IMG/VR virus record: IMGVR_UViG_3300042516_001592 | Location: 1 to 41,777 of that record | Strand: one strand, 5' to 3' | Source: a virus | DNA: 41,777 nucleotides | Shown here: positions 1 through 41,777 of the stretch, one piece after another | Layout of the letters: each line of letters begins with the position of its first letter | Position numbering within the stretch: the first letter of the stretch is position 1 | Position numbers and translations under genes: made by a program | The notes under the pieces: model-generated | Seen by the model: the letters and a program-made list of their open reading frames with translations, nothing else | The model's database searches: none | Told to the model about the DNA's origin: nothing

Positions 1-182
1 GCCTGCAATACGGTTGCCTTCCTAAGAAGCCCGCTAGACAGAACAGAAATCTGAAGCAAGCTAGGATCGACATTAGCACCAAGGTCAACTTGATCTGATA
101 TAGAACCCGGCAACAGCGTCGCATTGTTTACATGCGCGTTTAGGTTTGTTACAGAAACCGTTGAATTGGTCGTTGAATAAGT
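1..182. repeat. Terminal direct repeat, left copy
   Basis: Bases 1-182 are repeated at 41596-41777. The only difference seen is TT at 128-129 against CC at 41723-41724. Since a fibre gene reads in frame across the joint, this is best read as the overlap of a circular or circularly permuted genome assembled as a linear contig, with about 41,595 unique bp. A genuine short terminal repeat is possible but less likely, because the repeat lies inside a gene. Confidence 0.93.
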
Positions 183-7935: not shown

Positions 7936-7936
7936 A

Positions 7937-24369: not shown

Positions 24370-24735
24370 TTAAGCCTGCTCCGCTTGGAAGGTTTTGTAG
24401 ATCTGAGCCAGAACCATGTCTGCATCCAGAAGTGCTGCTCGGTCACCGGGAAACGAGGACATATCGTCTGGTGTGCGGTTGCGTACCCGTTGCACCAGTT
24501 GCTCGATGCACTCCTGTGACTTCAAGGCTAAGTGCCTGTACATGATTAAGGTGGATCGCAGATCAGCGATTACCTGCGCTTGTCTGTTGTGCGCTTCAAC
24601 ATACTGATTGATTTGGGTTTCCATATATTTGATTTCGTTTGTTAATTTACTGACAGTTTCACCTATATCTATCTGCTGTTGCAGTCGCAAGGATTTTATT
24701 TGCTCCATCAAGTTGTCGATGATTTGTGCGCTCAT
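24370..24735 (-). CDS. Coiled-coil protein downstream of the helicase C-half
   Basis: A 121-aa protein starting MSAQIIDNLMEQIKSLRLQQ; residues 1-70 are a long coiled coil. The C-terminal third has D-D-M-S-S-F-P-G-D-R-A-A-L-L-D-A-D. The ATG overlaps the stop of the helicase C-half gene (ATGA), so the two are translationally coupled. It could be a partner of the split helicase or its loader, but no motif shows this. Confidence 0.55.
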   Translation of the reverse strand: MSAQIIDNLMEQIKSLRLQQQIDIGETVSKLTNEIKYMETQINQYVEAHNRQAQVIADLRSTLIMYRHLALKSQECIEQLVQRVRNRTPDDMSSFPGDRAALLDADMVLAQIYKTFQAEQA

Positions 24736-25328
24736 TTGCCTCGTGAGTTGAACTTTGCATACTTGCCCGAAAATCCCAACTTGGCACTCACGCCACACGG
24801 CCCTGAGCGTTGAATGGGAATACTGATCTCTCGTTCAGTTGGATCTTCCGTAAGTTTAACGATGATGACTGCTGTTGCATCCTGCCCGATTGCTCGGCTT
24901 TCGCGTGCCCTGCCCTGCTCGTTAAGTTGCGTAATAGCAAACACCACGCACCCAAGCTCAAGGCCCAGCAAGCGCAACCTGCGGCTAACCTCAGCCACCT
25001 CACGCTCACGGGTAATATCCTTGTGTGTAGTTAAGTCGCACCTGACAAGTTGGATGTAATCGACGAACAGGATCTTTAAGCCCTCTGGCGATTTTGCCAT
25101 CGCTCGGGCTGCTGCTACTATGGACGCAATGTCATGCAGATCATCACGGATCACAAGTGGCACTTTATTCAAAGCCGTCATAGCCTTGAACACTCCCTTC
25201 ATCTCACCCTCGCTTTTTACGCCCTCTGCTAGAGAGCGCAGCGACACCTCACCTAAGTTGGCTACAAGTCGATCAATGATCTGCTGAGCAGACATTTCCA
25301 GACTCACTATCATTATTCCTTTTTTCAT
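24732..25328 (-). CDS. DnaB-type replicative helicase, C-terminal half
   Basis: A 198-aa protein that is the second half of the RecA-like core of a DnaB helicase. Visible motifs: S-L-E-M-S-A at residues 9-14 (catalytic Glu region, E11), Walker B I-L-F-V-D-Y-I-Q at 86-93, H3 A-I-T-Q-L-N at 131-136, D-A-T-A-V-I at about 150, and a C-terminal R-S-G-P-C-G segment (about 174-179) equivalent to the arginine-finger region. Walker A is absent: it lies on the separate gene at 26635-27366. The start MKKGIMIVSLEM is exactly where a DnaB continues after Walker A and its first helix. The two halves would have to fold together in trans. Confidence 0.85.
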   Translation of the reverse strand: MKKGIMIVSLEMSAQQIIDRLVANLGEVSLRSLAEGVKSEGEMKGVFKAMTALNKVPLVIRDDLHDIASIVAAARAMAKSPEGLKILFVDYIQLVRCDLTTHKDITREREVAEVSRRLRLLGLELGCVVFAITQLNEQGRARESRAIGQDATAVIIVKLTEDPTEREISIPIQRSGPCGVSAKLGFSGKYAKFNSRGK

Positions 25329-25334
25329 TTTTTA
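25323..25334. repeat. Short direct repeat at the left border of the helicase insert
   Basis: TTTCATTTTTTA here and TTTCATTTTTA at 26664-26674 lie in the same orientation, at the points where the helicase reading is broken. The two copies differ by one T. Consistent with insertion or recombination between short A/T tracts; low complexity means chance is not excluded. Confidence 0.45.
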
Positions 25335-25336
25335 GT

Positions 25337-25582
25337 TTATCGTTTTCCATTTCCGGGTCTTGCTGATGTGTTTGACTTCTGTCCATCGTACTTGACCACC
25401 TTAAGATCCACTTGAATCACATCACTCGACTGATTCTGTGGCAGCTTCTCGATCTCTTCGAGATGCTTATATGCCTCCTCCTTTGTTCCACGGAAGACAA
25501 CGTCATTACAAATCTTCGGCCTTGGCAGCTTTACATCTGCAATGACAGTCGTCTTGCGGAAGACGATGTAGTCTAGTCCCAT
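25337..25582 (-). CDS. Hypothetical protein within the helicase insert
   Basis: An 81-aa protein (MGLDYIVFRKTTVIAD at its start) with E-E-A-Y-K-H-L-E-E-I-E helical middle and a basic C-terminus. The ATG at 25582 overlaps the stop of the exonuclease gene by ten bases; a longer reading to 25642 is less likely. It ends 8 bp before the helicase C-half. Function unknown. Confidence 0.6.
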   Translation of the reverse strand: MGLDYIVFRKTTVIADVKLPRPKICNDVVFRGTKEEAYKHLEEIEKLPQNQSSDVIQVDLKVVKYDGQKSNTSARPGNGKR

Positions 25583-26349
25583 TTCCGTAGCCCAATAGTT
25601 CTGATGGTTGGAAGCCCCGGCCATGTGTCCGTCTCGATGCAATGCTTTAAGCCTGCAACTGCCTCGTCTAGCTTCAGGTCTGCCTTGTACAGCACTTCAT
25701 CATCTGGCTTAACCCACTGAGCCAAGAACGGCTCTTCGGTATCCACAACAAGGAAGTAGAAATCTACTGCATCTAGCCCATGAATTTGTTTCAGCCCATA
25801 AGCATACCAAGCTGCTTGCCTGTCGTACTTGAGGCTAAAGAACTTTGAATCAAAGCGCATGATGTCGCTTGTGGTTTTCAAGTCCACAATTGCTGGTCTG
25901 CCCTTGATCTCGGTAATGACATCTGGACGTCCCTTGCACTGCATCCCGCCTCGCTCCCAGAACATACTGCCTTCGATGATCTTCTTTGCAGAGATCATGT
26001 TAAGCAGTGGCTCACAGGCCTTAACTGCACCTTCAATGCGAGCGGCTTCCTCGGCGTTTACGACGATCTTGCCTTGGTTCTCAAAACAGAAGTCATGCCA
26101 CTCTTCCCTCCCGGCTTTAGTCTTGCGATTGATTTCCTCTGGTGCCTGCACATAATCCACGCGCCCCTCAAGGGCGAGCGAGTGAATGCAAGTTCCAAGT
26201 TCCATCTCCTTTGATGGTTTCCATTCTTGGGTCCCACGCCATTTGTAATAGGCTGGACAAACGCTAAAGGCATCGAGTTGATGCTTAGAAAGCCCATCAA
26301 GCTTTCTGTACTGGTTCATTTCTAAATCAAGGATTAGTTCTGTTTTCAT
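25573..26349 (-). CDS. RecE-like / PDDEXK exonuclease
   Basis: A 258-aa protein with the PD-(D/E)XK fold signature of the phage RecE / lambda-exonuclease-like group (DUF3799-type): G-T-C-I-H at 52-56 (H56), E127 in I-I-E-G-S-M, K-G-R-P-D-V at 139-144 (D143), V-D-L-K-T at 155-159 (D156, K158), and Q-A-A-W-Y at 178-182. It probably degrades duplex ends to give single-stranded tails for annealing recombination. In this genome it lies inside the insert that splits the helicase gene, and overlaps the upstream gene by ATGA. A recombinase such as RecT/Erf was not recognised nearby; the SSB-like gene at 29059-29721 may cooperate. Confidence 0.85.
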   Translation of the reverse strand: MKTELILDLEMNQYRKLDGLSKHQLDAFSVCPAYYKWRGTQEWKPSKEMELGTCIHSLALEGRVDYVQAPEEINRKTKAGREEWHDFCFENQGKIVVNAEEAARIEGAVKACEPLLNMISAKKIIEGSMFWERGGMQCKGRPDVITEIKGRPAIVDLKTTSDIMRFDSKFFSLKYDRQAAWYAYGLKQIHGLDAVDFYFLVVDTEEPFLAQWVKPDDEVLYKADLKLDEAVAGLKHCIETDTWPGLPTIRTIGLRKWD

Positions 26350-26669
26350 TTCTTATAGCTGTTGTTGGCTTGTAATGCTCCGCAACCGATGATGTTACCA
26401 CCCTGATCGCGAATCAGTTTTGACGGACTAAGCAGGTCTGCTCGTTCCGGCAGGCATTCACGGATATACGAACTCACAACGTATAGCACGCCTTTTTTTT
26501 CAGGAGGCATATTTGATACGTCTCCCTGTGTTGCGAGCATGATCGGTATGCCTTCCACAGAGTCTACCTGCGATAGGTACGAGTGGCTGCGTGGGATTGT
26601 GCCTGACGGCTCAATGTCGCCGTACCCAGTGATGTTAATTTTGTGCGGTGTTAAGTTTACTAATTTCAT
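26346..26669 (-). CDS. Conserved 'NLTPHxI' phage protein
   Basis: A 107-aa protein with N-L-T-P-H-K-I-N-I near the N-terminus, then G-I-P-I-M and a C-terminal R-D-Q-G-G-N-I-I-G-C-G segment. Small proteins of this type are common in phages of actinobacteria and others; their function is not known to me. Its start lies inside the final codons of the helicase N-half: the N-half tail is the other-frame reading of this gene's 5' end. It is the first gene of the insert that separates the helicase halves. Confidence 0.7.
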   Translation of the reverse strand: MKLVNLTPHKINITGYGDIEPSGTIPRSHSYLSQVDSVEGIPIMLATQGDVSNMPPEKKGVLYVVSSYIRECLPERADLLSPSKLIRDQGGNIIGCGALQANNSYKK

Positions 26670-27366
26670 TTTTAATCATTTCTACCATTACATTTACGAT
26701 TACGTTTAGTACCCAAGTTGTTTTCCCTGATTTTGTTTCGCCACCAACTACGATCAAGTCTGATTCGCGCATCGGTGTGATGTTATCAATCTCTGGAAAC
26801 CCGGTTCTGATTCTGGTGCTGTTGTCATCACCAGTCTCGTACCGATTAGTTGCCTCCATTAATTGAGCCCTAGTGTCAAGCACTTTAGGAGGAGCAATCT
26901 CATTTTGCACTCCTTCAGACACTGCCACTAGCCCTGTAAGGAACTCGTTTAAGTCCCCAGACCTGATATCCGTCTGCGCGTTGTGCAACACTATCTGCAT
27001 AGTCCTGCGCTTTGCGGCTGTACGGGTTAGCTCAATGAACTCGCTAGCGAGCGACAAGATCGGACAGGCCGTGTACAAGTCACTCAACTGATAAAACTCC
27101 AGATGAGTATCCTTCCGTGCCAACTCATAGATGACGCGAATGTCAGTCGCCTTACCTTGAGCCGCCTGCTGTAGGGTGATCTCTGCAATGTTTCGGAGTT
27201 GGATGTCGAAGATGTCAGCAACGCTAAAGGCTGCTTCGGTGATCTTTAGCAACGCCTCGTCCGGGTTGTTCAGGATGATGCTGATAAGTCCTTTCTCGGC
27301 CTCCTCTGCACGGCAGAACTCAAGCTCTGGCGTTGGGCTACCACCCTTCTGTTTGCGTGTTTGCAT
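26635..27366 (-). CDS. DnaB-type replicative helicase, N-terminal half
   Basis: A 243-aa protein that carries the DnaB N-terminal helical domain (residues about 15-110, with E-K-G-L-I-S-I-I-L and the linker), the start of the RecA-like core with G-F-P-E-I-D around 190, and Walker A G-E-T-K-S-G-K-T at 209-216. It then stops about 27 residues after Walker A. The last residues (N-E-I-S-K-L-N-T-A-Q-N) are the out-of-frame reading of the next gene. In the family the core would continue to S-L-E-M some 21 residues after G-K-T; here that segment begins the gene at 24732-25328. Start ATG 27366 overlaps the upstream gene by 29 bp. Confidence 0.85.
   Translation of the reverse strand: MQTRKQKGGSPTPELEFCRAEEAEKGLISIILNNPDEALLKITEAAFSVADIFDIQLRNIAEITLQQAAQGKATDIRVIYELARKDTHLEFYQLSDLYTACPILSLASEFIELTRTAAKRRTMQIVLHNAQTDIRSGDLNEFLTGLVAVSEGVQNEIAPPKVLDTRAQLMEATNRYETGDDNSTRIRTGFPEIDNITPMRESDLIVVGGETKSGKTTWVLNVIVNVMVEMIKNEISKLNTAQN
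26664..26674. repeat. Short direct repeat at the right border of the helicase insert
   Basis: TTTCATTTTTA, same orientation as TTTCATTTTTTA at 25323-25334. It covers the point where the helicase N-half leaves its ancestral frame. Confidence 0.45.
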
Positions 27367-28093
27367 TGCTCAGTAAATTATCTGCTTTTTGGAAAACGCG
27401 AACTGGTTGTGCTGCCAACTTGCGGGCTTCCTCCTCACGGAACTTTCGTGAACGCCTAAGCCATCCCGAAAGATACTTGCCAGTGCCATTCTCGGTTTTG
27501 ATTTTCTGTGGATTTGTGATGAGCCAGTTCTGCGCCTCACGGTACTCCTCGATCACGAACTGCTCGCCGTAAGTTGCAATATGGTTTTTCACAAGTTGAG
27601 TAGGAGGATTGTATGTTCCACCTTTGCATGTGAACTGAAAGTTGAAGGCTTCAGACTGCTCGGGTTTCCCCTTTTCCCCATCTTCCTTCCTTTCCCCCAC
27701 ACCCCCTATCCTACCATCTTCCCCCTTTTCCCCTTCCCCTTGCTGTAGACTTTGGATAAAAGTTTCTAGGATTTCAGGGCAAGTATCCTCAATCATCGCC
27801 TCAACTGAGGTGTACCGTTTTCCGGTAGACTTAAGATCTTGGTTCGACGGGAAGGTTGGAGACACTTGATACTTCCTCATTGCTTGCTCAAGGTCAGTAG
27901 CTGCCTGCACAGGTGTTGGCACATTGAATAAACGAACTACCGCGTCCTGCGTTTCTGTGGGTGTTTCTACTGGGGTTACAGGCTCCGGCTGATAAGGTAC
28001 AGCGGACTCAATGGAAGCTGGCGTAGAATCGTCGATTGGAATATCGAGTTCAATCTTGGTGCCGCCTGCGGTTGTGATGCGAAGTTTAATCAT
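27338..28093 (-). CDS. Replisome organiser / helicase loader-like protein
   Basis: A 251-aa protein. The N-terminal 80 residues are Pro/Thr/Glu-rich, the middle contains a run of Gly/Glu/Lys residues (E-K-G-E-D-G-R-I-G-G), and the C-terminal 60 residues carry W-L-I-T-N-P-Q-K-I-K-T-E-N-G-T-G-K-Y-L-S-G-W-L, the signature at the end of many phage replication initiator/replisome-organiser proteins (N-P-x-x-x-x-T-x-x-G, then a W-L). It lies directly before the helicase N-half with an overlap, as helicase loaders often do. A role in loading the helicase is therefore likely but not proved. Confidence 0.65.
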   Translation of the reverse strand: MIKLRITTAGGTKIELDIPIDDSTPASIESAVPYQPEPVTPVETPTETQDAVVRLFNVPTPVQAATDLEQAMRKYQVSPTFPSNQDLKSTGKRYTSVEAMIEDTCPEILETFIQSLQQGEGEKGEDGRIGGVGERKEDGEKGKPEQSEAFNFQFTCKGGTYNPPTQLVKNHIATYGEQFVIEEYREAQNWLITNPQKIKTENGTGKYLSGWLRRSRKFREEEARKLAAQPVRVFQKADNLLSNANTQTEGW

Positions 28094-29808: not shown

Positions 29809-29967
29809 TTATCTGCGTTTTGCAGACTTTGCCTGTTGTTGACGTGCAGCTTGTTTTTGCACTGAGTAAGCAACGGCGACTGCCTGCTTCTGTGGTTTGC
29901 CTGCACCAAGTTCCTGTCGGAGGTTGTGCGTGAATGCTTTGTCGGATGCGGATTTAACGAGTGGCAT
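29809..29967 (-). CDS. Small basic protein, DUF6496-like
   Basis: A 52-aa basic protein starting MPLVKSASDKAFTHNLR and continuing G-A-G-K-P-Q-K-Q-A-V-A-V-A-Y. The pattern M-P-L-x-K-[SG]-x-S-x-x-A-x-x-x-N-[IL] ... G-[KR]-P-Q-K-Q-A-V-A marks a widespread small phage family annotated as DUF6496. The ATG at 29967 overlaps the end of the 1547-aa gene by 14 bp. Function unknown; its charge suggests DNA contact in the virion. Confidence 0.75.
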   Translation of the reverse strand: MPLVKSASDKAFTHNLRQELGAGKPQKQAVAVAYSVQKQAARQQQAKSAKRR

Positions 29968-32900
29968 ATTGCTTCTTTTTGTTAAAGTGCTTGGCTTGAG
30001 CCTTTTTAATGGCGTCTTTGTAATTGTTAATGACAGCTTCTTGACTGAGCTTGCCTGCACTTGTGGCAACCCAGACCTTAAAGTTCCCTTGCGGAGTCTT
30101 AGTGATGATCATGTTAGACGGCAAGCGCGGCTCGTCAATCGGAGTAATGATCTCAACTGAGGGCTCAGGTAATGGCGCGGCTGTATCAAGTGGTGCTGGC
30201 TCTCGCTTTGGTTGATCTGCTGCCTTCTTTGCAAGTTCCCGCAAGATGTCATTCATTGACTTCTTTGGATCTGTTCCAAGCAAGTTAACTACACGTTCAG
30301 ATATTCTAGTCTGCTGCGGAGCTTGCTCTCTTGGTAGGCCAACATCACTTAGAGCCTCAAAACCTTGATACATTCCGGGCTTTGTTGGTTGCGGTACAGG
30401 GCCAAGATCTCGTCGAGTAAACGCTGGAGTAACTTCTTTCATTGCCATTGCCTCAAGCTCTTGAGTAGGCATCTTCTGGCGAACCTTTGAGCGGATCTTC
30501 CTTACAGTCTCTTCTTCAAGAATAGGAGCATCACGCTTTGCAAGCTCACGCTCCACATCAGCTCTAAACATTGCGCTTTCACGAGGAGTGAGATTGCCTG
30601 TAGCTTCCGCCCTTCTTGTGGCGGGGCCACCAACACCCTCTTGCTGGCTCTTCGCTATCTTCGCAAGTGCCCGTGCCGCTATGCTGTTTTCAGAAGCGGA
30701 TAAGTCTTTTAGGAACTGAGTCCTTTGGTTCTCAGTAATCTGTGAGTAACCGGGGAACTGCTCTGCCCTTTGATTAAGCTCTGTCTGCTGACGGACTGCT
30801 GCCTGCTCTACAATGGAAGGTTTAATTTTACCCTTGGCTCTTTGTGGTTGTGCTGGCTGTGTTGCGGCCAACTTGGCCTCTTGCTTTGCTTGTCCAGCCG
30901 CAGACATCCACTCACTCATTATCCTAGATGGAGCTTCATCTTCCATCCGTCCACGCAGTGCCTTTGCTTGCTCTGCCTTTCTTGCTATTGCAGCAGGACT
31001 TTTTGGCGAAAAGCGAATATCAGACTTATTTAAGCTCGTCTGCGCTTGTTGGAAGTCCTCGTAAACACCAATTAGCTTTCCAGCTTCATCGTAAACTTTA
31101 GTGCGACCAGTTGGTAAAATGTATGCCTTCCGTCCAGTGCCTTGATCTGTCAGCACCTTATCATTTCCTATAGACTCTGATGTGGTTGTCCGAGGAGAGA
31201 AGTTGGCTCGTTGTGTGTCCTTGAACTTCTGAATGTCTAGCTTAACACCAACAGGAAGGCCATCTCTTCCAGCATAAAGCTGTACATTACGAATAGCATC
31301 TAGCCGGATGTTTTGAATAACATTGCGGTCGCGATACAGCTTTGATTGTGCGACTTCCTTGCCATAGATATCGTAGCCTTGGAACTTCTGTCCGGGTGCC
31401 TGTGGAAGCTCAGTAGCAAATGGCTGGTTCTTTAATCTATCAATACTCTTGTATGGCTCTGTCTTCCTTGGCTCAATCCCATTAGAAAGAAACATCAAGT
31501 CACGCATTACTTGTGCGCTCTTCTTTGGGTTCCTTGCAGTTGCAGGAGCGAGTTGCTCAAACAGCTTTGCTCCCGGAATACTTGAAGGATTTGAGTAGTT
31601 CTCAATGTGAGCCTTAACTAGCGGGACAAAATCATCAACTGATCTGATGTTGAAGTCCTTCAAGGCAGCATCAACCATCTCCATCCCCGGCAGCGTTCTT
31701 GTGTGGTTCGCTATATCATTAAGCAGCGTAACATTATAAACAGCACCCATTGGGCCTCCTGTCTCAGTCTGCTGCATCCCAACGCCCATTAGCATTTGCT
31801 GGCCTCTTACTGCATACACCCTATCCTTTGCACTGGTCGTCTTACCAAGAGCAATATCATGGTCAACCAACATTAGTTGTCCGTACTTTGCGGCTTCGTT
31901 AAACCGAGCAACTGCCTCTTGGTTCTCTGGCAAAATCAACGGCTCACCATGATGAGTCTTAATTTGGAATAAAGAGTTTAACTGCTGATTATCTAGTCCC
32001 CTAGTAAAAATGACAGGAGTACCTTCGGATATATTTCCAAGGGCATCTGCCCCAGAGGAAACCTTAGGAGACTCAATCTGGGAAAACTGACTAAAGATGT
32101 TCCTATGGTAATCATCTTGTCCCAGCTCATCGCGTTTCCCTTGTTTTTTTCTGCCGCCAAGTTTTGTGGTTGGATCACCGGGTTGCGCTTTGCTCTCTTG
32201 TGGTTGAGAGTGCGTATCCTCGTACCTCTTTAAAGGCACAAGTCCAATCACGGTAGTGCCATCTGGCATCTTGTCGCCAACATTTACACCGGGCATTGGC
32301 TCGGTTACTGGCGGCTTTGTGCCCCTTGTTTGCGGAAGTGGGGACTCGCCAAATAGGTTTTGCCCATTCCTGATACTGCGCTTGAGTGTGTCTGCTGTCT
32401 TCTCAAGAACTGGATCTTTAATCAACTTGCCATCTTTGTAGAAGAACCCAGTAATAGGATCTAAAGTTGGCGCTGTAGGGGCAGACGTCAGCCCAGCAAA
32501 CATGTCCGTAAGAACCTTTGTCACTCCAAGGCCATAACCTCTCGCCGTAGCAAGCGCAGATGGATCTTCGTTCTTTAACAGTTGAGCAACACCATTTGCC
32601 GCCCATTCATGGGCTAATTGCAATGCTGCACGTTGTCTGTCAGATGCTGGCCTTGAGGCGTCCTTAGCAATATCCAAGTCTCGCTTGAATAGTTCTGCTG
32701 CCTGCGGATTACTTTGAGCCTGTACATCGTAGTATTGCTGCCCAAGTTGAATCAATGGATCTAGTGCGTACTGTAGGCCACCATTCTGCTGAACAAGATC
32801 GCCAATGATCTTATTCGCGGCCTTATCACTCATAAAAGAATGAGTAACTTCCTCGATGGCAGAAGGCACATTGATCTGATCTGCGTTAATTAAGATGGTT

Positions 32901-34597
32901 GACCTGCCAGACCTAGTGTCGTTAGCCACCCTAACGCCCTTACCCATGTTGTCGCCTGTACCGCCAAGGTAGTCTGGAAGTGTTGTCTCGTTGTTTACAA
33001 ACAAAACTTGATTGCCAGCAAACTCGGCACTCTTGAGGATAGAAAAAAGTCTAGCTTTATCCGTAGTGGACATGCCTTCCCTGTTAAGAACACTCATCCT
33101 AGCGGCCAAGTCCGCAGAGGAGATCTCTTGATCGTTAAGGATAACACTTTTATTTTCTGGCCGCTGAACTAGATCCCTAGCCATTTCCCTAACAAATGCA
33201 CGATTGCGAGCAGCAGGAGTAAGTTCAATAAGTCCTCCAACTGTACCTAGAGTGGCACCAGCAGCCATACCTCCAATGCCGCCTAAAAGCATCTGTGCTG
33301 CCACATCAGTTCCTGTATTGAACGGATCAGCCATTGCCTGCGCCCCAGAAAAGCTAGCACCTATCGCGCCCCCAGTAATGCTAGCGTCTACCACCTGCCC
33401 AATCCCTCTAGTAATAGAATCAGGCGGCAGGAATGTAGCAATGCCTCTAAGCATTGTATCTGACTTACCTTGAGTCGCAGCAGCCTTTAGCCCTTCGGCA
33501 ATTACTTCACTAGCAGAGTCAGCGCCTATAGCTTCAGCAGCCCACTTGGCAGCTTTAGATATCTTTGCGGTTGCTTTAAGCCCAACAGGGCCAATGGCTC
33601 TGGCTCCCAAAAGAGTTGCAATGATTGGATGTTCTTCGTATGTAAGCGCAGCTCCGATTCCAGATCCAACAGGCCCTAGTGGCAGCTTCCCGGCTTGCTC
33701 AAGAGCATACTCAGCTCCCCTTTCAATTCCTCCAGCAATGGCTGACGTAGCCGCTGACACCCCCTGCCTGACTGCTCCAACGCTACTTTCCTTTGCTACA
33801 CTTTCAATAGTTTGCTCTGCGACTTTTCTTCCAAAAGATCCAGCAAGTTTAGAGACACCGGGAAAAAGGACAGTAACATCCAAGACATTCTTGATCTTGT
33901 TTGCGTTTTCAGCAGCCCAAGGGTCGAGAGGAAGATTACTTTCCCCAGCAGCGTAAGCTGCCTCCTGCTTCTGCATGTCTTTCAATGCAAGGTAAGCCTT
34001 GTACTTGCCATCTTTAGATCCAAGCATTGGGATTATCATTCCGGCAGTTTCGCCAAGAACTTCAGTCCCACGGATTCCACCTTCAACAATCGAGCCTAAA
34101 GCGTTAATCTGTTGCCTTGGCGAGTATCCCGCATTCAAAGCCACTCCGGCAGCAGTGTTGAGCCCCTTAACGCCTTCCCATAAGTTACCGATAACTTCTG
34201 GCCCAATCTCAACTACCTTCTTTAAGAGTCCGGGTTCCCCCTTTGCTCGTTCCGCCCTTGCCTCTTGAGCGGCATTAGCCGAGTTCATCACAAGATTAAA
34301 GTCCTCAAGACTTACCTTGTCGCCAGCGTTATCCATCATCTGCAATGCAATGTTCTGCACTGTCTTTGGAAACTGCTGAGAAAGCCCTTTCTCAAGATCC
34401 CCTTCAGCTACAGCCTCCTCAAGCATGATACGGATAGGCTTCCCATCTTCGCCTCTATGATACGGAAGTTCAATAACAGTGCCAGCAGGCACCATCTTTG
34501 TGCTGCCTACAGATGCGTACTGAGGTTCTTCCGAGTATCCGCCTTGCGCTGGATAAAAGTCCTTCGATACTTCAGGCTGGGAAACTGGATCTGCCAT
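29954..34597 (-). CDS. Very large internal virion / ejection-type protein
   Basis: A 1547-aa protein, the largest gene. Residues about 260-470 are rich in Gly/Ala with hydrophobic helices (G-A-A-L, G-G-I-G-G-M-A-A-G), like internal proteins that form an ejection channel. Around 582-586 it has E-E-V-T-H, with H663-E664 downstream, which resembles a zincin HExxH site in which the first His is Glu, so a protease domain may be inactive. Further on are long helical, charged regions. At the C-terminus are Lys-rich segments. It follows two other internal-virion-type genes, and the podoviral layout (large proteins ejected with the DNA) fits. No lytic transglycosylase motif was seen. Confidence 0.6.
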   Translation of the reverse strand: MADPVSQPEVSKDFYPAQGGYSEEPQYASVGSTKMVPAGTVIELPYHRGEDGKPIRIMLEEAVAEGDLEKGLSQQFPKTVQNIALQMMDNAGDKVSLEDFNLVMNSANAAQEARAERAKGEPGLLKKVVEIGPEVIGNLWEGVKGLNTAAGVALNAGYSPRQQINALGSIVEGGIRGTEVLGETAGMIIPMLGSKDGKYKAYLALKDMQKQEAAYAAGESNLPLDPWAAENANKIKNVLDVTVLFPGVSKLAGSFGRKVAEQTIESVAKESSVGAVRQGVSAATSAIAGGIERGAEYALEQAGKLPLGPVGSGIGAALTYEEHPIIATLLGARAIGPVGLKATAKISKAAKWAAEAIGADSASEVIAEGLKAAATQGKSDTMLRGIATFLPPDSITRGIGQVVDASITGGAIGASFSGAQAMADPFNTGTDVAAQMLLGGIGGMAAGATLGTVGGLIELTPAARNRAFVREMARDLVQRPENKSVILNDQEISSADLAARMSVLNREGMSTTDKARLFSILKSAEFAGNQVLFVNNETTLPDYLGGTGDNMGKGVRVANDTRSGRSTILINADQINVPSAIEEVTHSFMSDKAANKIIGDLVQQNGGLQYALDPLIQLGQQYYDVQAQSNPQAAELFKRDLDIAKDASRPASDRQRAALQLAHEWAANGVAQLLKNEDPSALATARGYGLGVTKVLTDMFAGLTSAPTAPTLDPITGFFYKDGKLIKDPVLEKTADTLKRSIRNGQNLFGESPLPQTRGTKPPVTEPMPGVNVGDKMPDGTTVIGLVPLKRYEDTHSQPQESKAQPGDPTTKLGGRKKQGKRDELGQDDYHRNIFSQFSQIESPKVSSGADALGNISEGTPVIFTRGLDNQQLNSLFQIKTHHGEPLILPENQEAVARFNEAAKYGQLMLVDHDIALGKTTSAKDRVYAVRGQQMLMGVGMQQTETGGPMGAVYNVTLLNDIANHTRTLPGMEMVDAALKDFNIRSVDDFVPLVKAHIENYSNPSSIPGAKLFEQLAPATARNPKKSAQVMRDLMFLSNGIEPRKTEPYKSIDRLKNQPFATELPQAPGQKFQGYDIYGKEVAQSKLYRDRNVIQNIRLDAIRNVQLYAGRDGLPVGVKLDIQKFKDTQRANFSPRTTTSESIGNDKVLTDQGTGRKAYILPTGRTKVYDEAGKLIGVYEDFQQAQTSLNKSDIRFSPKSPAAIARKAEQAKALRGRMEDEAPSRIMSEWMSAAGQAKQEAKLAATQPAQPQRAKGKIKPSIVEQAAVRQQTELNQRAEQFPGYSQITENQRTQFLKDLSASENSIAARALAKIAKSQQEGVGGPATRRAEATGNLTPRESAMFRADVERELAKRDAPILEEETVRKIRSKVRQKMPTQELEAMAMKEVTPAFTRRDLGPVPQPTKPGMYQGFEALSDVGLPREQAPQQTRISERVVNLLGTDPKKSMNDILRELAKKAADQPKREPAPLDTAAPLPEPSVEIITPIDEPRLPSNMIITKTPQGNFKVWVATSAGKLSQEAVINNYKDAIKKAQAKHFNKKKQYATR

Positions 34598-34599
34598 GA

Positions 34600-35736
34600 T
34601 TATGGGGTTGTTACGTATCTAAATTTGATAGGCGAAGTAGATGTTGGCAACGCTTGTCGGGACGGTGCCATTCCGGCAGAACCTGAAAATACAGGAGTAG
34701 ATCCCATTTCTCCAGTAGATACTGATTGCACCCCACCATACATTGGAGGGACTGCCGCTGGAATATTCTCAACTTCAGCAAGCGGATCTTTAAATTGCAT
34801 TTGCTTTAGGCCCATTTTTGAAGCGTGCCAAGGGCCAACTGTGTCAACAATAGTTTTTTTTGCATCGTTCTCAGTCTTAGTATAGGCTTCAATTGCTGTT
34901 CGGGTACTCTTATACCATGCTTCTGGGTCCGAGCTGATTGCCTGTTTAACATTGTCAACAAAAGCAGAAACAGAACTTTCTCGCTCTGGAGAACCCGGCT
35001 TTGATTTCATTATCCTGTCGATAACACCAGCCGTCACAGCGCCAAACTTTGCCCCCTGCTGGTACTGCTTAAATGGACTCATTAAAGCGTCAGCTTTTCT
35101 AAGCACTTCATTTAACTGCTCTGCGTTTGCGGTTATTGCGCCCTGTAGTGTTTGCGTTATATTTTGAAGCGCATACTGAGATGTCTGATCTCTTATAAAC
35201 CTAGCCTGTTTAATATTCTCCTCTCCGCCTTGGTTTTCTAGTAGTTTTGCGCGAGCAAGATCCTTGCCTACAACTCCGACTTGATCCCTAAGGATATTAA
35301 CAACTTTAAAGTCGTCTTCTATTTTTACCTTTCTAGCCAGCGCAGCCTTGTACTCGTCGGTAGACTCATATGGCTTTGCTAATTGCTCTGGATTATACGT
35401 AGCCTTAAGTATTGAAATTCTTTGCTCTGCTCCTTTTTCAGCAGGATCAATCCTGCTCAGTGCACCTTGAAACTTTATCCAGTTTTTTGCGTTTTGAGTG
35501 TCATACACAACGCCCCTGCCGTTTCTTGCAAACTCTGGCAAACTTTCGAGGTTCTTATCAATTTTAGTTAGCGCATCATTTTCACTTTTTTGAATAGCCA
35601 GCTCGCGATCTTGAGCCTGTTGAAGCAACATCTGCTGTCTGCGCTGAGACTCAAGGTCACGTTGGCTTGCAAGATCTTGTGCAAATTTAACATACTCTTG
35701 GGCAGCCTGAGATTGAAGTGGATAAGATTGCTCCAT
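34600..35736 (-). CDS. Internal virion-type helical protein
   Basis: A 378-aa protein. The first 60 residues are a Gln/Arg/Glu-rich helix (L-E-S-Q-R-R-Q-Q-M-L-L-Q-Q), followed by a long charged helical region and a beta-like, Pro/Ser-rich C-terminus ending in T-S-P-I-K-F-R-Y. No enzymatic motif. Position between two other large virion-type genes, 2 bp before the 1547-aa gene, suggests a virion core component. Assignment by composition and context only. Confidence 0.55.
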   Translation of the reverse strand: MEQSYPLQSQAAQEYVKFAQDLASQRDLESQRRQQMLLQQAQDRELAIQKSENDALTKIDKNLESLPEFARNGRGVVYDTQNAKNWIKFQGALSRIDPAEKGAEQRISILKATYNPEQLAKPYESTDEYKAALARKVKIEDDFKVVNILRDQVGVVGKDLARAKLLENQGGEENIKQARFIRDQTSQYALQNITQTLQGAITANAEQLNEVLRKADALMSPFKQYQQGAKFGAVTAGVIDRIMKSKPGSPERESSVSAFVDNVKQAISSDPEAWYKSTRTAIEAYTKTENDAKKTIVDTVGPWHASKMGLKQMQFKDPLAEVENIPAAVPPMYGGVQSVSTGEMGSTPVFSGSAGMAPSRQALPTSTSPIKFRYVTTP

Positions 35737-35766
35737 ATATAAGATTTAATTTATCCCCCCACACTT

Positions 35767-36837
35767 CTATCGGACTGGACGAACTGGATGGAATGCGTCT
35801 GGCTGCCACTCATCAACCCCGCCTGAGCTATAGTCTGGCAGGCCTCCGGGGAGGGTAAAGTCTACAGCCCCATAAGATCCTCTTGGAATAACTGGAGCCG
35901 CTGCGCCGGAAGCTTTGGGTTTACTCATAATCATTCCAGCCATGCCTTTTGCGTAGTCTGCTTCATTTCTTCTTGATTGCAACTGCATCTGTCTGTCAAA
36001 CTCTACATTGCCAGTAGCAGTTTTAGACAGCAGCGGCATTGCAGTTTGCAAGAACCTTGCCCCATCAATTGCGCCAAGTGTGTCTTTGTACTTTAAGATA
36101 GCATCAGTCTGATTTTGGTCTATCCCCGGAAAAAGCGCACTGCGAGCCGCTGGATCTTTTAACATCCCTTCCATCACGCGAGACGATTTGTTGGCTCCCT
36201 GTACTTCTTGCATGTACGAGCCAAGTGCGCCCATAGCGGCATCACCGACATCCATGTTGCCTCCGCTGCCACCTCTTGACATTCCACTTCCACTCATGCC
36301 TCCACCGCCGCTAGTCAACATACTTGTTCCGATTTGGCCGAGCATACCGCCAGCCGCGTTTAATCCACCAGCAAATCCACCTGCTCCAGTAGCTGCGGTT
36401 GGAGCGCCAGTGAATGCGCTCAATGCTCCTTTACCAAAAGTTCCCAAGCCAGCTAAAAATCCACCACTGCTTGCTGCCCCGGCTGCGCCTGCTCCAGTTG
36501 CCGCTGCTGTGCCAGCTCCGGCTGCCGCTGCTGTTCCTGCTGCACCCGCTGCTCCAGCGCCTGCTGCTCCTCCTGCTGCGGCTGCTCCGCCCGCAACTCC
36601 TGCTGCTGCTGGGGCTGCTGCTAATGCAGCGCCACCAGTTGCAAGTGCAGCCGCGCCAAGGATAACGCCCATTACGATCTTTCTCTTCTTTTCTTCTTTT
36701 TTGCGGCGCTCCTCCTCTTCGCGCTTGTATTCAATTTCAGCCTGCGCTCCACCCATTCGGGAATATGCGCTGGCAATTTGATTGGCAGTTTCCTGTGGAA
36801 AGTAGTTTTGCCGATTAGCTTCTGAGAATCCTTGCAT
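35767..36837 (-). CDS. Ala/Gly-rich virion-type protein with a hydrophobic segment
   Basis: A 356-aa protein. A charged helix at residues 34-53 (K-R-E-E-E-E-R-R-K-K-E-E-K-K-R-K) is followed at 54-135 by a long Ala/Gly-rich, hydrophobic stretch (A-A-A-L-A-T-G-G-A-A and many A-A-G repeats), which may insert in the membrane or form a flexible core. The C-terminal part is Gly/Met/Ser-rich. It is preceded by the 852-aa gene and followed by the 378-aa gene. Such 'charged helix then glycine-alanine' proteins occur among internal virion proteins of short-tailed phages. No motif proves it. Confidence 0.55.
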   Translation of the reverse strand: MQGFSEANRQNYFPQETANQIASAYSRMGGAQAEIEYKREEEERRKKEEKKRKIVMGVILGAAALATGGAALAAAPAAAGVAGGAAAAGGAAGAGAAGAAGTAAAAGAGTAAATGAGAAGAASSGGFLAGLGTFGKGALSAFTGAPTAATGAGGFAGGLNAAGGMLGQIGTSMLTSGGGGMSGSGMSRGGSGGNMDVGDAAMGALGSYMQEVQGANKSSRVMEGMLKDPAARSALFPGIDQNQTDAILKYKDTLGAIDGARFLQTAMPLLSKTATGNVEFDRQMQLQSRRNEADYAKGMAGMIMSKPKASGAAAPVIPRGSYGAVDFTLPGGLPDYSSGGVDEWQPDAFHPVRPVR

Positions 36838-36849
36838 ATAAATAACAGG

Positions 36850-39408
36850 TTAAACAACTTCGCCGTTTTCGCGGATGAACGGCACATCTTCGCCAAGCAA
36901 ATTGAATATCTTCATCCAGAATGCCTGAACTGGCTTAAATAACCAACCATGTTTATTTTGCCCGTAATGCCACTTGGCATACGACACAGCCGGATCTGCA
37001 AACAGCTTAGACACTGCAAACTTAAACAATTTAGACTTGCGCATCAAGGGAACAAATACTTCAGCCAGTTTGTAGTACCCACGACGATTGCGTGGCGTAA
37101 CATGCTCGTCCCTGTAGCGACGAACAGCCTCATCCATCACACCGTTGCCGTACCGGGCCTCTAGCATAATAAAGCAGCACAATCCGCCGCCCCCGCCGCC
37201 TGAAGGCTGGCTTGCCTTGCCTTGCAAGTACGACGCAGCAAAGTTTGCTTGGTTGGCGTACTGGCTCATCGTGTTTTGATAAGGCAACATGTTTAGCCCG
37301 GTAATCACAGGATTAGTTGGGTTGGCAATGTTAAGCCCAGCTTGAGCGTATTGATTTTGTGCTTGGTTTGCGGATGTGCCGTAGGCCCCTTGAGTTGGGG
37401 GCACATTAAAGTACGCAGACATTGCTGGCCCCATTGCTTGCTGTTGTGTTCCAAGAACACTTGCGGCAATCTGGGCTTGATTTGCTTGCAATGTATTTGC
37501 CGCCTGCATCCTGCCAGATTCAGCCTCACCTCTAGCAAGAGCTTGATTGAACTGCTGGCCTTGAATCGCAGCAGCCTGTTGTTCTCTTGTAGCAGCTTGT
37601 CCAAATTGTTGGGCCTGCGTACTAAGGCCAAGTTGTTCTTTACCCAAAGCCTGTTGGTATTGCTGCCCCTGAACTGCGGCCTGTTGCTGCTCTTTAGTTG
37701 CCGCTTGCCCAAACTGCTGCGCCTGAGTTGACAGCCCAAGCTGCTCTTGCCCCAGTGCCTGCTGATACTGCTGTGCCTGAAGGCCAAGGCCAAACTGCTG
37801 TAATCCGAGCCGCTGCTGGTACTCTTGAGCTTGAGCAGTTCTTTGTAAGTCTTCCTGAGCCATACCTTGCCCAAACATCTGAGCTTGCGCTCCAAGACCG
37901 TACTGCTCGGATCCCACCTGTCTAGCGTATGTCTGCGCCAATGCTGGCTGATACAAGCTAGAAATGGTTCCCATAGCCTGCTGGGCAGCAGCCTGCCGCT
38001 CGCGATATCTTCGCTCTGAAAGCTCTTCGCGACCTAGCACCTCTGCCGTAATAGCCTGTGGCCCAAGTGCCATTCCTCTGTCAGCGTAAGCCTGACGAGC
38101 AGCCTGAGTTGCCATTCGCTCTTGCTCTGGAGTTAGCGATCTTCCAAGGGATAGGTCTAGGTTAATCTGTTCTCCAAGACGCCGCGCTCCCTCTTCAACT
38201 CCGGGCATTACGCCCATGTATTGAGATACAAGATTTTGATCAATATTACCAAGAGCAGATTGCAGTTCAGGGCCAGCAACGCTTGAAGTGTATTCGCCGG
38301 GCCTGTACGCCTGCATCCCGCCAAGGGACATGTCTGCGGTTGGCCCCGCAACTTGAGACAAGTATTGACCAGAGACTGGACCTTGCACTTGCCCTAACTC
38401 TTGTCCGTAAACTGGACCTTGAACCTGTGCAAGTGCTTGTCCTGCCGTTGGGCCTGCAATGTCGCCAAGTTCCTGTCCATAAGTTGGCCCACCAACCTGC
38501 TGCTCAAATGCTGTAAGCTCTGGAGCTTGATTTGCCCTTGCGGCCATCTGTGCGCCAAGAGATCCAAGAGATCCAAGTGTTTGCTCGGCCCCCGGCATCT
38601 GATCTAAGTACTGCTGTTGATACTGAGGCATCAACTCTTTGTACTGATCAAGCTTGCCGCGCTGAATAGCCTGGTTAAATAGCGTGTCTGTACGAGCGGC
38701 TAGTTCGGCTGTTGGGATGTTTGCAAACTGCGCGTCGTAAGCGGATAGCTTTTGCTGCTCTTCAGCAGTTAAATCTGTCTTACTGCGCAGTGCGCTAATT
38801 TCAGGCGTGTCTGTAGCAGCCTGAATGTTCTTGAGCATCTGTTCGCGTTGAGCTTGCCCGGTAACTTCAGCCAGCATTGGAGCATACTGAAGCTCAAGAT
38901 TTGCCGCCTCTCCCAAGACGGCCTTCATTGCATCTACGTTTTCCTGTAGAACGGCTTTGGTATCTGGAGGCTGCTGTGACTTAGCGTAGATTGCCAGCTT
39001 CCCAATAGTGTCAGCGTCTTTTTCTTTTGGGGACTTCCCTAAAGCTGCATACGCCGTTTTGCTTCCAGTTGCATATTTAGCTTCTAAACCTTTAAGTAAC
39101 GCAGCAGCTTCGTTTCTGGCCGTCTTTGAGTAAGTTCCAGAATCGGCAATAATGGCATTAAGCCTATTCTTTTTGTTGATGTACGAATTGTTCCAATCCG
39201 TTAAAAATGCGCCATCTCTTGCGTCTTCAGAGCTTAATGTATCTAGTCTTAACTGACTAAATTCTTCTTTGAGCTTACGGCTAGATTCATCTGCGTTAAG
39301 TGCAGCTTGTCTGGCGGCGTATTCTTTTTTGGCAACAAATCTAGTACCATCGTAAATATACTGACCATCATAAGATACGTCGCCCTCTTCGGGATTATAA
39401 TAAGCCAT
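36850..39408 (-). CDS. Gln-rich repeat virion-type protein
   Basis: An 852-aa protein with three parts. Residues 1-300 are charged and helical. Residues 310-380 have four to five repeats of G-P-x-x-G-Q-x-L-x-x-[VI]-x-G. Residues about 500-630 have tandem Gln/Ala repeats of the type L-G-L-x-x-Q-A-Q-Q-[FY]-x-Q-A. The C-terminal 120 residues (C-C-F-I-M-L-E-A-R-Y-G-N-G and R-N-R-R-G-Y-Y-K-L) are a different, conserved domain often found at the end of large aquatic-phage proteins. Position near the other internal-virion genes suggests a structural role; the C-terminal domain function is unknown. Confidence 0.6.
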   Translation of the reverse strand: MAYYNPEEGDVSYDGQYIYDGTRFVAKKEYAARQAALNADESSRKLKEEFSQLRLDTLSSEDARDGAFLTDWNNSYINKKNRLNAIIADSGTYSKTARNEAAALLKGLEAKYATGSKTAYAALGKSPKEKDADTIGKLAIYAKSQQPPDTKAVLQENVDAMKAVLGEAANLELQYAPMLAEVTGQAQREQMLKNIQAATDTPEISALRSKTDLTAEEQQKLSAYDAQFANIPTAELAARTDTLFNQAIQRGKLDQYKELMPQYQQQYLDQMPGAEQTLGSLGSLGAQMAARANQAPELTAFEQQVGGPTYGQELGDIAGPTAGQALAQVQGPVYGQELGQVQGPVSGQYLSQVAGPTADMSLGGMQAYRPGEYTSSVAGPELQSALGNIDQNLVSQYMGVMPGVEEGARRLGEQINLDLSLGRSLTPEQERMATQAARQAYADRGMALGPQAITAEVLGREELSERRYRERQAAAQQAMGTISSLYQPALAQTYARQVGSEQYGLGAQAQMFGQGMAQEDLQRTAQAQEYQQRLGLQQFGLGLQAQQYQQALGQEQLGLSTQAQQFGQAATKEQQQAAVQGQQYQQALGKEQLGLSTQAQQFGQAATREQQAAAIQGQQFNQALARGEAESGRMQAANTLQANQAQIAASVLGTQQQAMGPAMSAYFNVPPTQGAYGTSANQAQNQYAQAGLNIANPTNPVITGLNMLPYQNTMSQYANQANFAASYLQGKASQPSGGGGGGLCCFIMLEARYGNGVMDEAVRRYRDEHVTPRNRRGYYKLAEVFVPLMRKSKLFKFAVSKLFADPAVSYAKWHYGQNKHGWLFKPVQAFWMKIFNLLGEDVPFIRENGEVV

Positions 39409-39426: not shown

Positions 39427-40314
39427 TTAAGCAGTGAACGTAATCGTTCCAGAATTAATAAATGTGTGGACAGTAAACGCGCCACTAGGTGCCGTTGTGT
39501 TGCCAGTGCCAGTGATTGTAGCTCGAGATGGAGATGCGTACCAGATCTTTACCACACCAGAGCCGCCATTTCCTCCAAGAGATAAAAGTCCTGCACCACC
39601 GCCTCCGCCACCAAGATTTACGGTTCCATTTACTCCAGTCCCAGTTCCTCCGGGGCCACCATATCCACCTCCACCTCCGCCCCCTGTTCCGCCAGCAGCG
39701 CGGCCAGCCACGGTTGTATTTCTCCCGCCTCCTCCTCCTCCTGAGTAAACCACAGAAACTCCAGCAACAGTGGCGGATCTTCCAGCTCCTCCAGTTCCAC
39801 CTACGGTGGATGTAGCATTTCCTCCAACAGCCCCAGCTCCTCCACCTCCGCCGCCTAAAAAGTTAGGGCTAGCAAAAAATCCAATGCCACCATTGTAGCC
39901 TTGAATTGAAGCTAAAAATGGAACATTTCCAATCCCAGCACTTCCAGCAATGCCAGCGTCTGACACTCCTCCACCACCGCCACACCCACCGTTTGAGCCA
40001 TTTGCCCCCGCTTGCGGTCGATTAGATGTGCCCCCACCACCTCCGCCAGAAGATGAATATCCGTTAACCTCAGAATCTGTTCCATTTTCTCCTTGCGCTG
40101 GGCCTCCGCTTCCAGCTCCCCCAGATCCAACAGTCACAGGATATGGAAATCCAATGTCAAATTGAACTCCAGTTTGCGAGACAAGTCCACCTCCACCTCC
40201 GCCACCATCGCCATAAAATCCTCCGCCTCCGCCTCCACCTGCTACAAGTAAAATGTTAACAGCTCCACTTAACGAGGAGGATGTAGAGAGAAAGTTTAAG
40301 GTTTTAGAAAACAT
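39427..40314 (-). CDS. Glycine-rich tail tip / adhesin-like protein 2
   Basis: A 295-aa protein like the one at 7078-7935: an N-terminus of about 20 residues, then from residue 25 to 250 runs of up to seven glycines interrupted by short polar segments, and a C-terminus with V-H-T-F-I-N-S-G-T-I-T-F. It lies 2 bp after tail fibre 3, mirroring the fibre 1 pair. A receptor-contacting tip with a polyglycine fold is the best guess. The two copies probably arose by duplication of a fibre plus tip module and then diverged. Confidence 0.75.
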   Translation of the reverse strand: MFSKTLNFLSTSSSLSGAVNILLVAGGGGGGGFYGDGGGGGGGLVSQTGVQFDIGFPYPVTVGSGGAGSGGPAQGENGTDSEVNGYSSSGGGGGGTSNRPQAGANGSNGGCGGGGGVSDAGIAGSAGIGNVPFLASIQGYNGGIGFFASPNFLGGGGGGAGAVGGNATSTVGGTGGAGRSATVAGVSVVYSGGGGGGRNTTVAGRAAGGTGGGGGGGYGGPGGTGTGVNGTVNLGGGGGGAGLLSLGGNGGSGVVKIWYASPSRATITGTGNTTAPSGAFTVHTFINSGTITFTA

Positions 40315-40316
40315 TA

Positions 40317-41777
40317 CTAGACGTAATTTTTAGACACATTTCCGTACCACTTTGTGCCGTCAGACACAAAAGAGAATATGTCAGTCCTAGAATTAGTTTG
40401 AGTTATAACTGGAGCAACTCCAGATGGCCAAGAAACACTTGTAAATGTAGCTGAGGGAGCTGGGCCACCAGCAGAAGGCTGCTTGAGGTACAGCGTAAAT
40501 GATTTGCCAGCAGCCACAGTTGGCATGGTGAACGTACAGGAAATGGAAGGTGTTAGTGTTGCAACAATCACGGTCGAACTACTGATGTCTAGCGTTTGCG
40601 CTGATCCAGCAGCAGCTATCGTCTGCACCCCTTCAGTGTACCCATTGATTGTTGGGTCTTGCTGGAATACAGCTAGCCCAGTGCCAGTCTTGTCAGTAAG
40701 TGCATTTCTTAAATTTGCACTAGATGGCGTCTGTAAAAAGCCAGCCACATTAGAAGCTAGGCCGCTAATCTTGGTTACACTTAAAGTAGTAATTTGACTA
40801 TCGGCAATCCCCACTCCAACTTGTGCAGCAGCAATTCCAGTAATTTGACCCGCTGTAATTCCAGAGCTAATTTGATTGGCAGACAAGCCAACAACTTGAG
40901 CCGATGTAATTCCTGACAAGATTTGATTTGCCCCAATCAAAACAGGCTGGCTACTTGCCCCAGTAACAACTCCATTTGCATTTACAGCCACTACAGGCAC
41001 CGAGGCTGCGCCCCCGTAAGTCCCGGCAGTCACACCGGAAGCCTGCAAGTTTACGCCTATTTGGCCGTTGCTAGTAATTGGACTATTCGTGACAGCAAGT
41101 GTGGTTGAAGCTACTCCAACTGAAGTAACCGTGCCACCTGCGGCTCCAGAAATGCCAACATTAGTTACTGAGGTGATCCGGCCAAGAGCATCAACCGTAA
41201 TTTGCGGGATTAAAGCATTGCTGCCGTAAGTACCACCAGAAGCACCAGAAGCTGGCAGAGCAGTAGAAGCAATGCTGGATACCTGCGCAGACGTAATACC
41301 TGGGCCAATCTGAGATGCTGACAGGCCAGTAATCTGTGCAGACGTTAATCCGGGCAGTACGTTTGCCGCGCTAACAGTGCCGCCTCCTGCTGCTGGCGTA
41401 TACCCAAGAGCTGCGGTTACGTTTGCGGCAGACAGCGACGTAAGGTTTGCGCTGGTTATCTCGGATCGGATGGCGGCAGAAGACTTGTTTTCTACGTTGC
41501 TAAGGCCAATATTAGTGCGAGCTGCTGTTGTGTCTGTAAGATCAGACAAGTTGTTGGCCTTAACAAGCAAACTTGACGTGTTAATGCCACCAAGCGCCTG
41601 CAATACGGTTGCCTTCCTAAGAAGCCCGCTAGACAGAACAGAAATCTGAAGCAAGCTAGGATCGACATTAGCACCAAGGTCAACTTGATCTGATATAGAA
41701 CCCGGCAACAGCGTCGCATTGTCCACATGCGCGTTTAGGTTTGTTACAGAAACCGTTGAATTGGTCGTTGAATAAGT
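40317..41777 (-). CDS. Tail fibre protein 3, C-terminal part (starts at 206)
   Basis: The body of the fibre gene that crosses the circular joint; the real start is at 206 and the product is 494 aa. Shaft features: repeats T-S-A-Q-[IV]-x-G-L-S-A, G-x-G-I-T-S-A-Q, and the block G-T-V-T-S-V-G followed by L-A-V-T-N-S-P-I, very close to fibre 1, as are the V-D-A-L-G-R-I-T and V-N-A-N-G-V-V-T-G segments. The C-terminal domain ends S-D-G-T-K-W-Y-G-N-V-S-K-N-Y, common in aquatic-phage fibres. It precedes the Gly-rich tip protein by 2 bp. Codons 26-27 differ between the terminal copies (Val-Asn at 126-131, Val-Asp at 41721-41726). Confidence 0.88.
   Translation of the reverse strand, partial: TYSTTNSTVSVTNLNAHVDNATLLPGSISDQVDLGANVDPSLLQISVLSSGLLRKATVLQALGGINTSSLLVKANNLSDLTDTTAARTNIGLSNVENKSSAAIRSEITSANLTSLSAANVTAALGYTPAAGGGTVSAANVLPGLTSAQITGLSASQIGPGITSAQVSSIASTALPASGASGGTYGSNALIPQITVDALGRITSVTNVGISGAAGGTVTSVGVASTTLAVTNSPITSNGQIGVNLQASGVTAGTYGGAASVPVVAVNANGVVTGASSQPVLIGANQILSGITSAQVVGLSANQISSGITAGQITGIAAAQVGVGIADSQITTLSVTKISGLASNVAGFLQTPSSANLRNALTDKTGTGLAVFQQDPTINGYTEGVQTIAAAGSAQTLDISSSTVIVATLTPSISCTFTMPTVAAGKSFTLYLKQPSAGGPAPSATFTSVSWPSGVAPVITQTNSRTDIFSFVSDGTKWYGNVSKNYV
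41596..41777. repeat. Terminal direct repeat, right copy
   Basis: Right-hand copy of the 182-base terminal overlap. The CC at 41723-41724, against TT in the left copy, changes the minus-strand codons from GTA AAC (Val-Asn) to GTG GAC (Val-Asp) in the tail fibre N-terminus. This could be true variation in the phage population or an assembly artefact. Confidence 0.93.

What the first reader, a model, noticed from the sequence alone, without database searches (positions are those of the whole stretch)
24732..27366. DnaB-type helicase split into two genes between Walker A and the next strand
The gene at 26635-27366 has the DnaB N-terminal domain and Walker A and stops about 27 residues later; the gene at 24732-25328 starts at the next core strand and holds SLEM, Walker B, the glutamine motif and the C-terminal Arg region. 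Joining ...VMVEMIK to KGIMIVSLEM gives a normal core with about 22 residues between GKT and SLEM, close to textbook DnaB spacing. Nothing of the core seems lost. The split is not an intein (no Cys/Ser intein start, no splicing motifs). A naturally two-subunit hexameric helicase, with the ATP site shared between chains, would be very unusual.
Basis: partly seen in the sequence, partly recalled or inferred. Interest (0 to 1): 0.8.

Follow-up and report, generated by a model that had tools for sequence, protein, structure and literature searches.

The report
Phage DnaB helicase in two chains
A whole lineage of uncultivated phages encodes its ring-shaped DNA-unwinding motor (DnaB helicase) as two separate proteins, cut through the ATP-binding core, and has kept it that way through deep divergence, which suggests that such a motor can work when each subunit is built from two non-covalent pieces.

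Summary
Confirmed, and larger than first reported. The window is a near-complete phage genome (41,777 b; 182-b redundant ends). Its only DnaB matches are a 243-aa N-chain (N-terminal domain, linker, Walker A) and a 198-aa C-chain (catalytic Glu, Walker B, Gln motif, Arg finger). They align to consecutive stretches of solved DnaB (residues 41-230 and 234-441). Between them lie p107, a RecE-type exonuclease gene and p101. It is neither an assembly error nor decay: the same split, in the same loop, with the same genes between, occurs in 89 further IMG/VR contigs; none of the 33 records searched holds an intact DnaB; dN/dS is about 0.05 in both halves. A tree gives one origin (support 100/99); intact sisters (L118, L287, L288) join both parts in one ORF. 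The N-chain can end 11 residues after GKT and the C-chain starts about 8 before SLEM, so there is no room for inteins; no intron RNA is found. Best explanation: an ancient gene fission whose two chains fold together non-covalently into each ring subunit. Reassembly is inferred; models of the separate halves were poor. Known genes-in-pieces (Aeh1 NrdA, T4 gp39/60, Aeromonas phage gp43) are other enzymes; I found no report of a split DnaB-type ring.

The parts
26635..27366 (-). N-chain of the split DnaB helicase (243 aa): N-terminal domain, linker, first core strand, Walker A and its helix
   Evidence: phrog_19 E=1e-16, Pfam DnaB_C profile 2-46; matches 2r6a_A residues 41-230; dN/dS 0.02-0.14
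26719..26742 (-). Walker A, GETKSGKT (residues 209-216 of the N-chain)
   Evidence: invariant in alignment A2; GK invariant also across clades and in intact L118
26635..26669 (-). Overlap of the N-chain tail (KNEISKLNTAQN) with the start of gene p107; the tail is variable among relatives
   Evidence: overlap of 4-82 nt in most relatives, minimum N-chain ends 11 aa after GKT
26346..26669 (-). p107, 107-aa gene of unknown function lying directly after the N-chain in all split relatives
   Evidence: phrog_30542 E=1.5e-17; conserved place
25573..26349 (-). RecE-type (exonuclease VIII-like) PD-(D/E)XK nuclease, 258 aa
   Evidence: phrog_412 E=2.5e-52, Pfam DUF3799 and PDDEXK_1
25337..25582 (-). p101 region, small gene of unknown function between the nuclease and the C-chain (ORF listed as 25337-25642; likely ATG start at 25582)
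   Evidence: no family match; conserved in relatives
24732..25328 (-). C-chain of the split DnaB helicase (198 aa): rest of the RecA-type core
   Evidence: Pfam DnaB_C E=8e-32, profile 49-254; matches 2r6a-type DnaB residues 234-441; dN/dS 0.01-0.07
25293..25304 (-). SLEM motif with the catalytic Glu (residues 9-12 of the C-chain)
   Evidence: invariant in A1, A5, A7
25056..25073 (-). Walker B, ILFVDY (residues 86-91 of the C-chain)
   Evidence: D90 and Y91 invariant
24921..24935 (-). Gln motif, ITQLN (residues 132-136 of the C-chain)
   Evidence: Q134 and L135 invariant
24807..24809 (-). Putative trans-acting Arg finger, R174 of the C-chain (IQRSGP; KQRNGP in bacterial DnaB)
   Evidence: Arg kept in all split members and in intact L118; the neighbouring Lys is not
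27338..28093 (-). p251, gene directly upstream of the N-chain; C-terminal part resembles phage replication initiators of the O/DnaD kind (from memory, no family match)
   Evidence: conserved neighbour; no Pfam or PHROG match

Best explanation
This is the phage's replicative DnaB-type helicase, encoded as two chains since one ancient gene fission in the loop between the Walker A helix and the next core strand. The chains are translated separately from one replication operon. They most likely dock non-covalently to rebuild each RecA-fold subunit, and six such pairs form the helicase ring. Each ATP site would use the P-loop of the N-chain, the catalytic Glu and Walker B of its partner C-chain, and the Arg finger of a C-chain in the neighbouring subunit. 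Shown: the split, its conservation, selection on both halves, single origin, catalytic residues kept, no intact copy in the records searched. Inferred: reassembly, ring formation, activity.
For: Halves match consecutive parts of one solved DnaB. Same split in 89 further contigs, with p107, RecE and p101 between. Two DnaB_C pieces and never an intact gene in 21 of 21 contigs of 38-44 kb, in the window, and in first-clade contigs. dN/dS about 0.05 in both halves. Walker A, SLEM, Walker B, Gln motif and Arg finger invariant. All 39 split rows on one side of a branch, support 100/99. The C-chain start is kept while the gene before it changes. Other split phage enzymes are known to work in pieces (PMC2988022).
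Against: No direct evidence that the chains bind each other. AlphaFold models of the separate halves have mean pLDDT 45 and 42, though from shallow alignments. The Lys next to the Arg finger of bacterial DnaB is missing (but also in intact L118). No protein-level data.
Confidence: 0.85

Rival explanations
1. The two halves are joined into one polypeptide after expression: by a split intein, by trans-splicing of a split intron, or by ribosome bypassing.
For: Split inteins in phage helicase genes are known ('fractured genes', from memory; titles).
Against: N-chains as short as 11 residues past GKT and C-chains starting about 8 residues before SLEM leave no room for intein halves. Known DnaB intein sites are the P-loop and motif H4, not this loop (PMC6195587). 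No Rfam match in the window, nor at E<=1 in 24500-27600. The segment between varies in content and holds several genes.
Confidence: 0.03
2. The helicase is broken or an assembly artefact, and the phage uses the host DnaB.
For: The record comes from a metagenome; one relative (L011) has a frameshift inside its N-half near a contig end.
Against: Same arrangement in 89 further contigs from many samples; dN/dS about 0.05; N-halves diverged to about 45% identity with motifs intact.
Confidence: 0.01
3. The two chains have separate jobs and do not form one helicase, for example the N-chain acts on the host helicase as a loader or adaptor and the C-chain is a structural or regulatory ring.
For: They are separate genes, and synonymous divergence suggests the halves have recombined as separate units. 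No test of association was possible.
Against: The C-chain lacks a P-loop yet keeps catalytic Glu, Walker B, Gln motif and Arg finger; the N-chain keeps Walker A and its helix but nothing after it. The parts complement each other exactly, and every long contig carries both.
Confidence: 0.1

Closest known systems
DnaB replicative helicase (Pfam PF00772 + PF03796; e.g. Geobacillus DnaB, PDB 2r6a)
   Same: Same domain order and motifs when the two chains are laid end to end.
   Different: Two genes instead of one, cut between the Walker A helix and the SLEM strand; shorter H4 loop and Arg-finger hairpin; no Lys beside the Arg finger.
Genes-in-pieces phage enzymes: Aeh1 NrdA, T4 topoisomerase gp39/gp60, Aeromonas phage 25/44RR gp43 (PMC2988022)
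   Same: A phage replication or nucleotide enzyme encoded by two genes with other genes between; for NrdA and gp43 the pieces work together.
   Different: Here a ring helicase; the inserted segment has no recognisable homing endonuclease; fixed in a large lineage rather than in single phages (as far as the review says).
Fractured helicase genes with split inteins (gp41-type, from memory)
   Same: A phage replicative helicase in two genes.
   Different: Those carry split inteins that rejoin the chain; none here.
Intact phage DnaB proteins L118, L287, L288
   Same: Nearest intact relatives found: about 43% identity to the split C-chains, same short H4 loop.
   Different: Both parts in one ORF; no p107-RecE-p101 segment inside.

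Membership tests
DnaB-type replicative helicase (superfamily 4) | RecA-type core matching DnaB_C with Walker A, catalytic Glu, Walker B, Gln motif and Arg finger | tested here: met
   Split over the two chains; all motifs present and invariant
DnaB-type replicative helicase (superfamily 4) | N-terminal DnaB domain and linker | tested here: met
   phrog_19 over residues 20-227; Pfam DnaB domain below cut-off in the window but above it in relative L334
DnaB-type replicative helicase (superfamily 4) | Core in a single polypeptide | tested here: not met
   Two ORFs in 90 records
DnaB-type replicative helicase (superfamily 4) | Hexamer, 5'-3' unwinding, ssDNA-stimulated ATPase | not testable with these tools
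   Needs purified proteins
Genes-in-pieces by homing endonuclease insertion | Gene broken into two ORFs whose products together equal the whole enzyme | tested here: met
Genes-in-pieces by homing endonuclease insertion | Homing endonuclease gene in the break | tested here: not met
   The three genes between match no such family; the nuclease is RecE-type
Split-intein fractured gene | Intein halves at the ends of the two ORFs | tested here: not met
   No room: tails of 11-37 aa after GKT, heads of about 8 aa before SLEM
Trans-spliced split intron | Intron RNA parts flanking the break | tested here: not met
   No Rfam match at gathering in the window or at E<=1 in 24500-27600; an unknown intron type cannot be excluded

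The most novel reading that the evidence does not exclude
A ring helicase of twelve chains (six N and six C) in which every ATP site is built from three polypeptides, and whose non-covalent seam has been kept because it does something, for example letting the ring open or assemble on DNA without a loader, or be controlled by the ratio of the two chains.
Probability: 0.15. Interest if true: 0.88.

Novelty: new variant of a known kind. Interest (0 to 1): 0.7.

Why it matters
DnaB-type ring helicases couple ATP use to movement within one polypeptide per subunit. A natural lineage that cut this core between the P-loop and the catalytic Glu, and kept it cut through deep divergence, would show that covalent continuity there is not needed. 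It offers a ready-made split motor for assembly studies and a test of whether gene fission in a replisome motor is adaptive or merely tolerated.

Tried and rejected
AlphaFold of the separate halves gave low confidence, so the models were not used and no fold search was run. Intein, intron and bypass explanations were rejected. A second intact DnaB was sought in the window and relatives and not found. Cultivated phages: the N-half matches nothing in 50,697 phage records, and C-half hits there are all under 60% identity. A short A-rich similarity (AATGAA) at the two break points was not taken as evidence of an insertion mechanism: the two sites are in different frames and both are A-rich start sites. 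Literature searches for a split DnaB found no report, but only open-access text was searched. A search with the DnaB N-domain alone in 13 relatives was too insensitive to be useful (4 of 13).

Full report
WHAT WAS CHECKED. On the minus strand the window holds a 243-aa ORF (26635-27366) and a 198-aa ORF (24732-25328), with three ORFs between them. The first matches the DnaB-like helicase family phrog_19 (residues 20-227, E=1e-16) and Pfam DnaB_C profile positions 2-46. The second matches DnaB_C positions 49-254 (E=8e-32). Profiles made from their relatives hit the same solved DnaB chain, 2r6a_A, at residues 41-230 and 234-441. So the two chains are consecutive parts of one helicase, cut in the short connection after the Walker A helix. 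In 130 of 149 intact DnaB proteins collected here, 20-21 residues separate GK[ST] from the SLEM-type motif; the split proteins supply 11-13 plus about 8, so nothing is missing at the seam.

COMPLETENESS OF THE GENOME. The first and last 182 bases of the record agree at 180 positions, as expected of a near-complete genome with redundant ends. The only DnaB_C matches in it are the two halves.

CONSERVATION. Relatives at 73-98% (N) and 88-93% (C) carry the same split. Wider searches brought in further clades, with C-chains at about 67-75% and N-chains at about 45-60% identity to the nearest query used; these are also split at the same place, with p107, RecE and p101 between. Counting each contig once, 89 contigs besides the window show both halves (loci of one contig merged with the list). 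In 21 contigs of 38-44 kb there are exactly two DnaB_C pieces each, never an intact one. Among 11 first-clade contigs nine show both pieces, and two, which are fragments, show one each. All other hits, about 190 viral and bacterial proteins, are intact, apart from a few cut by a contig end.

THE BREAK ITSELF. Across the lineage the N-chain ends 11 to 37 residues after GKT. The shortest form is GKTMLALNIIANLL followed by a stop that overlaps the start of p107; longer tails are mostly read-through of that start in another frame and are not conserved. The window's tail ISKLNTAQN is of this kind. The C-chain starts with M-x-x-G-[IV] about 8 residues before SLEM in most members, while the gene before it changes: p101 directly, a 134-aa gene, or a cytosine methyltransferase-like ORF. 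It is therefore a free-standing gene. It lacks a Shine-Dalgarno sequence, but so do 28 of 31 genes examined in this genome.

SELECTION AND HISTORY. dN/dS is 0.02-0.14 for the N-half and 0.01-0.07 for the C-half. A maximum-likelihood tree of the C-region (65 rows) puts all 39 split sequences on one side of a branch with support 100/99, with intact L118, L287 and L288 among the nearest intact rows. Those intact proteins join the two parts in one ORF (for example GGKSTLALSYASNVAREGGNVLILSLEM in L118). L118 shares the compact H4 loop and the missing Lys before the Arg finger, so these features predate the fission. Between the window and L003/L006/L008/L009, synonymous divergence is about 0.25-0.30 in the N-half but 1.0-1.3 in the C-half. 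This suggests that recombination has brought together halves of different descent, so the halves of related phages are probably interchangeable (inference).

MECHANISM. Inteins are excluded by lack of space, and the known DnaB intein sites are elsewhere (PMC6195587). No RNA family is detected in the region even at E<=1. The simplest account is fragment complementation: two separately made chains fold together into one RecA-type subunit, and six pairs make the ring. Retention of Walker A on one chain and of the catalytic Glu, Walker B, Gln motif and Arg finger on the other, across deep divergence, is hard to explain otherwise. Shown: split, conservation, selection, single origin. Inferred: association, ring, activity. 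AlphaFold of each half alone gave mean pLDDT 45 and 42; with nine near-identical sequences this says little either way. How the split arose is open: p107-RecE-p101 may have been inserted into an intact gene, since no such segment lies inside the intact relatives, but no transitional form was found.

COMPARISON. Phage enzymes cut in two by insertions are known: NrdA of Aeh1, T4 topoisomerase gp39/60 and gp43 of Aeromonas phages, reviewed in PMC2988022, which states that the Aeh1 pieces give a functional enzyme and that the split gp43 pieces co-purify and have polymerase activity. Here the enzyme is the replicative ring helicase, the inserted segment has no recognisable homing endonuclease, and the state is fixed in a large uncultivated lineage. 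Searches of open-access papers found no earlier report; subscription literature could not be searched. I file it as a new variant of a known kind.

Noticed in passing
window 1-182 and 41596-41777: The first and last 182 bases are identical at 180 positions: the record is probably a complete genome with redundant ends, two variants apart.
   Followed up: yes
window, minus-strand genes: Only 3 of 31 genes examined have a Shine-Dalgarno-like motif within 20 bases of the start; the host may be a lineage that uses little SD-led initiation.
   Followed up: no
window 24732-27366 versus L003, L006, L008, L009: Synonymous divergence is about 0.25-0.30 in the N-half and p107 but about 1.0-1.3 in the C-half, a sign of recombination between the two halves of the helicase.
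   Followed up: partly
L008:4196-5056, L111:4010-5044, L113:4019-5032: A cytosine methyltransferase-like ORF sits between p101 and the C-chain in many relatives, in different clades, and overlaps a second long ORF in another frame: an apparent gene-swap slot inside the split helicase.
   Followed up: partly
window 26635-26730 and L020: The Walker A helix end of the window and of L020 carries four extra residues (VMVE) not seen in other relatives.
   Followed up: no
L011:350-362: The N-half of contig 3300025872_000304 has a frameshift relative to L010; near a contig end, so perhaps an assembly error.
   Followed up: no
L062, DnaB ORF (826 aa): A Rokuibacteriota DnaB appears to carry an intein in its P-loop (...VTHNTAFALN).
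   Followed up: no
window 7078-7962 and 39427-40314: Two proteins of the same family (phrog_2295, unknown function) lie far apart in the genome, perhaps tail-related paralogues.
   Followed up: no
window 29954-34597: A 1547-aa ORF with no PHROG match, beside other large unmatched ORFs at 34600-39408.
   Followed up: no
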